This document shows, piece after piece, positions 35,338-51,517 of a stretch of DNA of 64,000 bases. The first letter of the stretch is position 1. Each line of letters starts with the position of its first letter. The stretch lies in the NCBI RefSeq assembly GCF_002913225.1, contig NZ_PPAW01000013.1:1-64000 (forward strand), read 5' to 3'. The DNA is from Campylobacter concisus (GTDB taxonomy: Bacteria; Campylobacterota; Campylobacteria; Campylobacterales; Campylobacteraceae). The translations under genes were made by a program, and so were the position numbers. The notes below the pieces were generated by a model that saw only the letters and a list, made by a program, of their open reading frames with translations, was not told the origin of the DNA and searched no databases.

Positions 35338-36378
35338 ATGAAAGAGCTTAAAATTTTTGCCATCGTTGTTATCCTTTCAGGTATTTTATACTGGGGTATC
35401 GAGCCTTACGCTCACACAAAGCTTCATCCGCACACTGCAAATGCCGAGTATAACTTCTCAAAAGAGGATACTGACTACGCAAAGCACTTTTTAGAGCAGA
35501 AAAAAGAGGCGCTTGAGGCTGCAAAAGCTAGCGGCAACAAAGCTAGCATAGAAGCAGCTACAAAAGATGTTGAGACAGCACAAAAAATTCTTGATGACTA
35601 CACAGCTTTTTGGGCTGATATAAATTCGATCGACCTTGCAAAAGGTGACGCTGCAAAAGGCGCTGAGACATTTGGCGCAGCTGGATGTACAGGATGTCAC
35701 GGCATCGAAGCAGCTGGCATGCCAGCTAGTATGGACGCTGAGACAGCTAGCCAAAGCTTTGGCGTAGTGCCACCAGATCTTAGCACAGCTGGTAAAATTT
35801 ATGACGAGAGATTTTTGGCTGCACTCATCAAAAATCCAACTATGGCTGTAAAACTATCTCATAAATTTAACGACGAGCATCCTTATCCGATGACAGCATT
35901 TATGGGTGCTGGCGGCGATATAAACGCTGAGATCGCTGACATAGTTGCTTACCTTAAAAAGGTATCAGCTGATGCGGATGCAAAGAGCAAGATCACTGAC
36001 GAGAAAGTCTTTGCTGATGCATGCCAAAGATGCCACGATATGAAGTATGACAAAAAATATACTCTTAGCAACAAAGCAAGCCTTGCAGCATATATGGGCT
36101 CAAACCCACCTGATCTATCTATGATGATCCGCTCAAAAGGTGCAGACTACTTGCATAAATTTATAAACGATACTCAAAAGATGCTTCCAGGCACTGCGAT
36201 GCCTAGAGTTGGCTTAAACAAAGCCGCTGAAGACGACATAGTATCTTACATAGAAAAAGTAGGCGACAGCAAAAAGGCTGAGCGCGAGAGCACAGGACTT
36301 TATGTCATGATCTACTTCTTCATCTTAGGAATTTTTGCTTGGCTTTGGAAACGCAAAGTCTGGAGCGAACTCCACTAA
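35338..36378 (+). CDS. petC: Ubiquinol-cytochrome c reductase, dihaem cytochrome c subunit
   Basis: A 346-residue c-type cytochrome with an N-terminal membrane segment, a coiled-coil-like Ala/Lys-rich stretch (about 45-85), and two haem motifs, CTGCH (about 119-123) and CQRCH (about 230-234). A C-terminal membrane anchor (LYVMIYFFILGIFAWLW) follows. The dihaem c4-like form is typical of epsilonproteobacterial bc1 complexes, in place of monohaem c1. Two bases separate it from petB; a hairpin terminator follows. Confidence 0.95.
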   Translation: MKELKIFAIVVILSGILYWGIEPYAHTKLHPHTANAEYNFSKEDTDYAKHFLEQKKEALEAAKASGNKASIEAATKDVETAQKILDDYTAFWADINSIDLAKGDAAKGAETFGAAGCTGCHGIEAAGMPASMDAETASQSFGVVPPDLSTAGKIYDERFLAALIKNPTMAVKLSHKFNDEHPYPMTAFMGAGGDINAEIADIVAYLKKVSADADAKSKITDEKVFADACQRCHDMKYDKKYTLSNKASLAAYMGSNPPDLSMMIRSKGADYLHKFINDTQKMLPGTAMPRVGLNKAAEDDIVSYIEKVGDSKKAERESTGLYVMIYFFILGIFAWLWKRKVWSELH

Positions 36379-36407: not shown

Positions 36408-36499
36408 CTTTCTAGTAAATTTACATATATAAATAGGTATGTGATTTTTTAAATTTATTCTTTTACAAATTTAATCAAGCTGTCTTTGCAAATTTTAAA

Positions 36500-36655
36500 A
36501 TTTACTTGACACTTATTTGACTTGAGAAAGCAAATTTACAAATTTTAAAATCTTACTCACTCGCCTTAGCAGACTACTAAATTTAGGGCTCATAGCCACT
36601 CGCCACTAAATTTAGAGCCGTGATATGCCAGCTCTAATTTTAAAATTTGACAGAG
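36500..36655. repeat. Structured intergenic repeat, copy A
   Basis: This non-coding unit resembles the unit at 36795-36950. Shared blocks include ACTCGC, GACTACT, GCCACTAAA, AGAGCCG and AATTTTAAAATTT. Its centre is an inverted repeat, CTAAATTTAG (36577-36586) with the same sequence at 36606-36615, which would form a 10-bp stem around a 19-base loop. It contains no plausible gene. The role is unknown; a structured RNA or a decayed repeat family are both possible. Confidence 0.45.
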
Positions 36656-36733
36656 TTTTTCTAGAAAAACCGCATGTAGAGCGTTAGCACCATTGCATGC
36701 CACCTCTAACGTGCGAGGGGATTAGGGGATTTA

Positions 36734-36786
36734 AAAAGGGGGATAAGGGGACGGCTTCGTAATTCAAGTCCCCTTGTCTCCCTTTT
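36734..36786 (+). ncRNA. Strong 19-bp stem-loop between the two repeat copies
   Basis: Bases 36734-36752 (AAAAGGGGGATAAGGGGAC) pair with 36768-36786 over 19 bp; the only two irregular pairs are G-U, allowed in RNA on the plus strand. The loop is 15 bases. GC-rich arms are unusual for this genome. The TTTTGAT after the right arm could make it a terminator, but it lies 330 bases from the nearest upstream gene. It might be the end of an untranslated RNA; no RNA family was recognised. Confidence 0.4.
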
Positions 36787-36794
36787 GATAAATT

Positions 36795-36950
36795 TACATC
36801 TCAAAGCAAATTTTAAACTTTCATTCACTCGCAAGAATTGACTACTGATTTTAGGTCTCGCAAAGCTTGCCACTAAAATCAGAGCCGAAATTACTCGCTC
36901 ATCAAATTTTAAAATTTTCTCAAATTTAACAAAACTGCATGCAGTTCAAT
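36795..36950. repeat. Structured intergenic repeat, copy B
   Basis: The second, diverged copy has a central stem CTGATTTTAG (36845-36854) with CTAAAATCAG (36873-36882), and an 18-base loop. Relative to copy A, both arms differ in matching ways, so pairing is kept although the sequence changed. It ends near a perfect 14-base palindrome AACTGCATGCAGTT (36933-36946). No gene is visible here. Confidence 0.45.
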
Positions 36951-36970: not shown

Positions 36971-37453
36971 CTACCTAGCTTCTATCTTTGGCATCTGCAG
37001 CATAAAATTTCTAGCTTCGCTTAAAAGCACTGGCTTAAGCGCATCTGCTGATGTTTGTGGGTCGTAAATTCTCTCATACGAAAGCATCAAAACTCCATCT
37101 TTTTTAAGTAAAAAGTGGATTATTTCTATATTTTTGCTCTTAGCCCCATCTTTTATGAAAGCTAAAATTTGATCATTTTCTTCGCTATAAAGCACATTTT
37201 TATCTTGCTTAAGAGCCTTTTTTAGCTCCTCTAGCTCGCTTTTTGTCTTAGCATCTTTGTCAAACTTTACTTTAAAAGCGGCAAAGTGCTCGTCCATATT
37301 TTCATTTTTTAAAAAGTAAAGGCTCTCGTTTTTAACCACTTGCTTCTTATAAAACGTGCTCCCATCAAATCTAAAACTCTCAACCAAGCTTAGCTCATCT
37401 GCCAAAGAAAAGAGACCAAAAAACAGCAAAACAAAAAGGCTAAATTTACGCAT
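36971..37453 (-). CDS. Exported hypothetical protein
   Basis: A 160-residue protein with a clear signal peptide (MRKFSLFVLLFFGLFSLADE), so probably periplasmic. The mature part is a small alpha/beta protein of unknown family, ending in ARNFMLQMPKIEAR. It stands alone, divergent from the antiporter gene and facing the repeat-rich intergenic region. Confidence 0.65.
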   Translation of the reverse strand: MRKFSLFVLLFFGLFSLADELSLVESFRFDGSTFYKKQVVKNESLYFLKNENMDEHFAAFKVKFDKDAKTKSELEELKKALKQDKNVLYSEENDQILAFIKDGAKSKNIEIIHFLLKKDGVLMLSYERIYDPQTSADALKPVLLSEARNFMLQMPKIEAR

Positions 37454-51344: not shown

Positions 51345-51419
51345 AAATCCTTTTGTAATTTCAAAAAGTTTATAGAAAATGGGCTAAAATTTATCTAAAT
51401 CTGCTAAAATAACGCGCAC

Positions 51420-51517
51420 GGAGGATAAAGTAATCTGGTGATGCTCACGGGCTTCAAACCCGATGACTGGGCGGTTGACCGTCTGGTGGGGAGTTCGATT
51501 CTCTCATCCTCTCGCCA
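51420..51517 (+). tRNA. selC: tRNA-Sec (anticodon UCA)
   Basis: A 98-base selenocysteine tRNA that reads UGA. The anticodon stem-loop GGGCTTCAAACCC carries anticodon TCA, a very long variable arm follows (GACTGGGCGGTTGACCGTCT), then the T-arm with TTCGATT and an encoded CCA (51515-51517). The acceptor starts GGAGGAT and pairs with ATCCTCT. The exact 5' base may be off by one because the outermost pair is a mismatch or G-U. No selenoprotein gene was recognised in the window. Confidence 0.93.

What the first reader, a model, noticed from the sequence alone, without database searches (positions are those of the whole stretch)
36500..36950. Duplicated intergenic hairpins with compensatory changes
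Two diverged copies about 270 bases apart share several blocks. Copy A has the stem CTAAATTTAG/CTAAATTTAG, copy B CTGATTTTAG/CTAAAATCAG: the arms differ at matching positions, so base pairing is kept (for example A-T replaced by G-C). Pairing kept despite sequence change is the sign of a selected RNA or DNA structure. I know no described element like it.
Basis: partly seen in the sequence, partly recalled or inferred. Interest (0 to 1): 0.62.

Follow-up and report, generated by a model that had tools for sequence, protein, structure and literature searches.

The report
Replication-oriented hairpin repeats in Campylobacter concisus
The two hairpins belong to a previously unreported family of folded repeats, scattered through the genomes of the mouth and gut bacterium Campylobacter concisus, which mostly point in the direction of DNA replication and sit where the chromosome has been cut and rejoined, so they look like one cause of its genome rearrangements.

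Summary
The two copies (36539-36649, 36807-36917) are ~112-bp units of an interspersed repeat: ~43 units in the window's genome, 13-70 in relatives, a few diverged copies in C. showae-like genomes. Units alternate with a GC-rich two-hairpin module (36650-36806) in mosaic arrays. Paired changes are genuine: five or more stem versions exist. The whole unit, not only the 10-bp stem, folds into one rod on the minus strand, with 17 of 30 pairs changed on both sides (0/500 shuffles) and G-U far above A-C departures. In four complete genomes 75 of 83 arrays point with replication; the 8 others sit beside chemoreceptor genes. The bias is weaker in the second clade (about 14 of 19 loci, my tally). No array lies within ~200 kb of dnaA. 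Arrays are rearrangement junctions; the window's array joins petC to a gene that lies elsewhere in all four relatives, and the reciprocal junction is present. No RAYT/IS200 transposase, no Rfam match, and no description found. Best reading: a BIME/MITE-like family acting on DNA, probably once spread by a strand-specific hairpin mechanism, now a substrate for homologous recombination. A bottom-strand RNA is not excluded.

The parts
36539..36649 (+). Unit A (one ~112-bp repeat unit; core stem CTAAATTTAG 36577-36586 / 36606-36615)
   Evidence: R1 match 108.6 bits; nhmmer; on the minus strand the whole unit folds as one rod, -36.3 kcal/mol, z -4.6
36807..36918 (+). Unit B (second unit type; core stem CTGATTTTAG 36845-36854 / CTAAAATCAG 36873-36882)
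   Evidence: R1 match 131.4 bits; minus-strand fold -30.8 kcal/mol, z -3.8
36650..36806 (+). GC-rich module C with AT-rich linkers: hairpin 1 about 36671-36715, hairpin 2 stem 36734-36752 / 36768-36786
   Evidence: fold z -4.6 (DNA) and -5.4 (RNA); 140 unique C modules in relatives, plus strand the more stable one in 125
36717..36750 (+). Four runs of 4-5 G on the plus strand of module C (possible G-quadruplex)
   Evidence: sequence; a G4-type motif is on the plus strand of 85 of 140 C modules, on the minus strand of none
36488..36538 (+). Bare palindrome GCAAATTTTAAAATTT (36488-36503) and short linker; the left edge of the array
   Evidence: repeat families D1 and D4; similar palindrome joints between modules at other loci
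36633..36650 (.). Palindromic joint at the right end of unit A
   Evidence: CAAATTTTAAAATTTG with at most 1 mismatch occurs in the window only in the array
36902..36917 (.). Palindromic joint at the right end of unit B and of the array
35338..36378 (+). petC-like cytochrome c gene: left side of the junction
   Evidence: ORF; the left flank maps to G014 240k, G016 324k, G019 294k, G027 253k
36971..37453 (-). 160-aa gene convergent to petC: right side of the junction
   Evidence: ORF; the flank maps to G014 1789k, G016 257k, G019 1788k, G027 1727k; found in 26 relatives at E<1e-70

Best explanation
The region is one array (unit A, module C, unit B) of an interspersed, non-coding mosaic repeat of the C. 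concisus complex. SHOWN: (1) The unit is an imperfect hairpin kept by paired changes in several independent stem versions, with conserved unpaired bases. The full-length fold, including two tandem GA/GA internal loops in the concisus types, exists on the minus strand. [quoted passage not shown] (3) Arrays differ in module composition at the same site. (4) Arrays are junctions of reciprocal rearrangements, including the window's own array. INFERRED: the hairpin acts as DNA. Copies probably spread in the past by a mechanism that reads one strand of a folded hairpin at replication forks (as in REP/IS200 or attC biology, with an enzyme no longer recognisable), or wrong-way insertions were removed because a strong hairpin on the lagging-strand template is unstable. 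Today the arrays act mainly as dispersed homology: crossovers between arrays on opposite replichores give inversions that keep their polarity, and exchange between arrays moves genes such as bioB-crcB.
For: Family size and mosaic structure. Covariation: core on plus: 13 pairs, 94.7% paired, covariation 0.384 against 0.154 shuffled; minus strand: 30 pairs, 17 changed on both sides, 0/500 shuffles, slid versions at most 0.07; outer arms alone 0.494 against 0.319. Strand: minus G-U 754, A-C 85 over 230 unique units; cross-type test, structure from the distant type R applied to type A rows, 104 G-U against 13 A-C, and B2 applied to R rows 22 against 0. Polarity: 75 of 83 clusters with the replichore, 6 against, 2 mixed; in convergent sites 39 with, 2 against, 2 mixed; in tandem sites whose genes lie on the lagging strand 5 of 5 with; the exceptions lie beside methyl-accepting chemotaxis genes. 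Junctions: the G014 arrays 306437 and 1537947 reappear with partners swapped as G016 374943 and 1614926; the window's array breaks synteny against all four genomes, and the reciprocal junction is at C56:1813-2256. Shared old site: topA-array-bioB in concisus and in showae-like genomes.
Against: No transposase or recombinase partner was found: no Y1 transposase in 48 genomes. No clean target duplication was seen; the one empty site examined has diverged flanks. In the second clade the polarity is weaker: by my tally 7 of 10 G007 loci and 7 of 9 G005 loci go with replication. Module C folds better on the opposite strand from the unit, so 'keep the strong strand off the lagging template' does not fit both modules. 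Many sites are shared by all four genomes, so the 83 clusters are only about 20-25 independent sites. Not every rearrangement between these genomes was shown to lie at an array: coverage was partial, and the comparison with G007 did not show junctions at arrays.
Confidence: 0.52

Rival explanations
1. The units make a structured RNA from the minus strand (3'-UTR hairpin or small RNA), and the paired changes protect that RNA.
For: G-U is strongly preferred over A-C on the minus strand across types; the minus-strand fold is regular, with tandem GA internal loops.
Against: The minus strand follows a gene's 3' end at convergent sites but is antisense to both neighbours at the many leading-strand tandem sites. 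Module C in the same arrays folds better on plus. No Rfam family matches above its gathering score. G-T is also the most tolerated mismatch in DNA hairpins (general knowledge).
Confidence: 0.25
2. The arrays are a functional polarity signal of the chromosome (for a segregation or fork-processing protein), kept in place by selection.
For: Replichore polarity and conserved sites. No copies within about 200 kb of dnaA although suitable gaps exist there.
Against: Only 10-25 sites per genome, with copy number varying about fivefold between clades, and no copies in many other Campylobacter. GGGNAGGG, the E. coli KOPS motif (recalled), is strand-polar here but lies outside the arrays.
Confidence: 0.12
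3. The compensatory changes come from mutation, not selection: template-directed correction between the two arms keeps each hairpin perfect, and gene conversion spreads the versions.
For: Few independent stem versions, each shared by many copies; one-sided intermediates in the upper stem are rare and balanced (48 G-T, 69 A-C on plus).
Against: Conserved unpaired positions (col 41 of the CTAC foot, col 73) and a recurrent mismatch persist in all types; outer arms keep G-U rather than perfect pairs on one strand. Correction would erase both.
Confidence: 0.15
4. A decayed MITE of an ordinary DDE transposon with no function other than past transposition.
For: Size, intergenic location, palindromic ends, mosaic arrays, no coding capacity.
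Against: The ends are not a classical pair of TIRs with a target duplication; the internal structure is conserved across species, which is not expected of a decayed MITE; replication polarity is not usual for such elements.
Confidence: 0.2

Closest known systems
REP sequences / BIMEs (with RAYT, TnpA-REP)
   Same: Intergenic imperfect hairpins with bulges, alternative complementary stem versions, a conserved foot tetranucleotide (here CTAC or TTAC), mosaic clusters, preference for convergent and tandem gene spacers (features of REPs in PMC3733652, PMC6006769)
   Different: Units of 112 nt rather than 21-65 nt, all in one orientation within most arrays, no 5' GTAG foot, no Y1/RAYT gene in 48 genomes, a GC-rich spacer module, orientation tied to replication
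Integron attC sites in sedentary chromosomal integrons
   Same: Long imperfect hairpin with conserved unpaired bases; the better-folding strand lies on the leading-strand template (PMC5371416)
   Different: No gene cassettes in array, no integron integrase over the cut-off, dispersed over the chromosome
MITEs and modular repeats (BOX, RUP, Correia, ERIC)
   Same: Short, non-coding, palindromic, intergenic, multi-copy, modular
   Different: No TIR/target-duplication signature or parent transposon found; strand-specific full-length structure; polar with replication
Dispersed repeats that mediate symmetric inversions (rRNA operons, IS elements, tlp genes)
   Same: Inverted copies on opposite replichores recombine reciprocally
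   Different: Here the substrate is a 0.1-1 kb non-coding hairpin array

Membership tests
REP/BIME (RAYT-associated) | RAYT / Y1 transposase gene in the genome or lineage | tested here: not met
   PF01797: 0 of 48 genus genomes; the control search rings in 5 reference genomes
REP/BIME (RAYT-associated) | 5' GTAG (or CGTC) unpaired foot before a short stem | tested here: not met
   5' foot is CTAC 182/230, TTAC 27/230 on plus; GTAG occurs only at the opposite foot of the complementary strand
REP/BIME (RAYT-associated) | Multi-copy intergenic hairpins in mosaic clusters | tested here: met
Integron attC | Integron integrase IntI | tested here: not met
   TIGR02249: best partial match 47 bits against a 265-bit cut-off
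Integron attC | Sites separated by gene cassettes in a single array | tested here: not met
   Arrays are dispersed and the modules are non-coding
Integron attC | Strand-specific imperfect hairpin with conserved unpaired bases | tested here: met
MITE | Terminal inverted repeats shared with a full-length transposon | not tested
   No parent element turned up among the fetched loci, but no systematic search for one was made
MITE | Target-site duplication at empty/filled sites | tested here: inconclusive
   One empty site in G007 (1457331-1457392); the flanks are too diverged to define the junction
Known structured RNA family (Rfam 15) | Match above the gathering score | tested here: not met
   The only gathering match in the window is tRNA-Sec elsewhere; weak hits in the array are far below gathering

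The most novel reading that the evidence does not exclude
The units are the recognition hairpins of an uncharacterised strand-specific system (ssDNA recombinase/transposase, or structured RNA) in C. concisus that installs or keeps arrays in the direction of replication and uses them as programmed exchange points between replichores.
Probability: 0.15. Interest if true: 0.82.

Novelty: new variant of a known kind. Interest (0 to 1): 0.6.

Why it matters
C. concisus has two genomospecies, is studied in inflammatory bowel disease, and shows gene rearrangement between strains that one paper noted without a cause (PMC5893538). This repeat family offers a concrete cause for part of that rearrangement, explains some assembly breaks, and gives a testable case where hairpin polarity follows replication, as reported for attC sites in sedentary integrons but without an integron or a recognisable enzyme. 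It also gives an unusually clear covariation record for a non-coding repeat.

Tried and rejected
RAYT/REP membership: no Y1 transposase. Integron attC: no IntI. Rfam: nothing. KOPS as the reason for polarity: GGGNAGGG is polar genome-wide but is not in the arrays. Palindrome as a genome-wide insertion target: CAAATTTTAAAATTTG is almost absent outside arrays at 0-1 mismatch, and the G007 empty site has none. Gene direction as the cause of polarity: fails at convergent sites and at tandem lagging sites. Lack of suitable gaps near the origin: gaps are present there. Synteny against G007 blocks did not show array junctions, but coverage was partial. Literature searches gave no description of this repeat.

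Full report
OBSERVATION. A DNA search of the window's own genome (1.92 Mb, 74 contigs) with the region found about 30 loci; model R1, built from 67 units, finds 43-44 units. In the genus, about 26 genomes carry 9-33 DNA matches each and the rest few or none. A pattern scan over 84,980 species genomes, with the core hairpin of two unit types, hits only C. concisus records and one C. showae record.

ANATOMY. A unit is ~112 bp, bounded by CAAATTTTAAAATTTG-like palindromes. Two flank types (A, B) and several stem versions exist: CTAAAATTTG/CAAATTTTAG, CTAAATTTAG/CTAAATTTAG, CTGATTTTAG/CTAAAATCAG, CCAAATTTCG/CGAAATTTGG (type R, showae-like genomes), and rarer CCAAATTCAG/CTGAATTTGG and CTAAATTTTG/CAAAATTTAG. 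Units alternate with a GC-rich module C of two hairpins or with short linkers, giving mosaic arrays such as A-C-B (window) or C-U-U-C-U-C. Module C carries G runs on its plus strand.

STRUCTURE. On an alignment of 55 units the 13-pair core is 94.7% paired, with 8 pairs changed on both sides and a covariation score of 0.384 (shuffled 0.154; slid versions at most 0.07). RNAalifold gives 16 pairs, 10 with compensatory change, and conserved unpaired positions. Folding the opposite strand shows more: the complete unit becomes one rod, with 26 consensus pairs of which 15 are compensatory, at -20.9 kcal/mol against -11.2 on plus (the two alignments differ somewhat in membership). Counting 30 named pairs gives 17 changed on both sides, 0 of 500 shuffles as high; the outer arms alone also covary. 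Over 230 unique units the minus strand has 7708 Watson-Crick, 754 G-U and 85 A-C cells. The structure for that count came from one member, so the test was repeated across types: type R's structure on type A rows gives 104 G-U against 13 A-C, B2's structure on type R rows 22 against 0. The minus strand is therefore the structural strand of the unit. For module C it is the plus strand (125 of 140). Cells count sequences, not events: the number of independent stem changes is about six.

POLARITY. Two of the complete genomes were checked to start at dnaA; for the other two this is assumed from their similar layout. In four complete genomes of the window's clade, 75 of 83 array clusters point with replication, 6 against, 2 are mixed (the replichore boundary was taken as half the chromosome length). 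The exceptions lie beside chemoreceptor genes, whose conserved 3' halves recombine on their own. Convergent sites (39 with, 2 against, 2 mixed) and sites between two lagging-strand genes (5 of 5 with) show that the rule is not simply gene direction. No array lies between divergent genes. No unit lies within roughly 200 kb of dnaA, although suitable gaps exist there. The bias is weaker in the other clade: by my tally 7 of 10 loci in the fetched part of G007 and 7 of 9 in G005. The sites are largely shared between genomes, so the number of independent sites is about 20-25.

REARRANGEMENT. Flank mapping shows that many arrays are synteny junctions. The clearest case: G014 arrays at 306437 and 1537947, on opposite replichores, correspond to G016 arrays at 374943 and 1614926 with partners exchanged reciprocally, the outcome expected of a crossover between inverted arrays. 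The window's array is itself such a junction: petC on its left maps to G014 240k and the 160-aa gene on its right to G014 1789k, and the same split is seen against G016, G019 and G027; the reciprocal junction (crcB side joined to the gene that follows petC in relatives) is at C56:1813-2256 of the window's genome. G019 shows a further exchange that puts bioB-crcB between petC and its old neighbour. At the topA-bioB site a unit is present both in concisus and, as type R, in showae-like genomes, so the family is probably older than that split.

MECHANISM. Shown: a conserved strand-specific hairpin, replication polarity in one clade, mosaic exchange, reciprocal junctions. Inferred: the hairpin acts as DNA. 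The arrays' polarity puts the unit's better-folding strand on the leading-strand template, the arrangement reported for attC sites of sedentary integrons (PMC5371416). Either past spread was strand-specific at forks, as for IS200/IS605 and REP (PMC6006769), or wrong-way copies were lost. No Y1 transposase remains in any of the 48 genomes searched, so the enzyme is unknown. A minus-strand RNA remains possible (0.25).

KNOWN OR NEW. It works most like REP/BIME or MITE families, but fails the tested defining features of REP (RAYT, GTAG foot) and of attC (IntI, cassettes). No paper in the library was found to describe it. I rate it a new variant of a known kind.

Noticed in passing
G014 1-400 kb, G007 400-800 kb and 1260-1660 kb: GGGNAGGG (E. 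coli KOPS consensus, recalled) occurs 22 times on the leading-sense strand and 0 times on the other outside the arrays; possibly the FtsK guide motif of C. concisus.
   Followed up: partly
G014 502k, 564k, 573k, 1036k and orthologues: Chemoreceptor (MCP) genes sit next to arrays, and the arrays whose polarity breaks the rule lie at these genes.
   Followed up: partly
window 36971-37453: The 160-aa gene right of the array has strong matches in only 26 other genomes of the genus, in two sequence clades (88-93% and 72-76% identity) that match the high- and low-copy repeat clades.
   Followed up: partly
G014 332542-334581: A flavoprotein-like oxidoreductase gene and a single unit are present together in G014 and absent together in G019.
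   Followed up: no
window 51419-51513: Selenocysteine tRNA gene, Rfam RF01852, 50.4 bits.
   Followed up: no
window 36717-36750 and 85 of 140 C modules: G-quadruplex-type motif always on the plus strand, i.e. [quoted passage not shown]
   Followed up: partly
unit minus strand, e.g. window 36807-36917: Two tandem GA/GA internal loops (GAGCGAG opposite CGAGTGAG) are conserved in most concisus-type units; they exist only on the minus strand.
   Followed up: no
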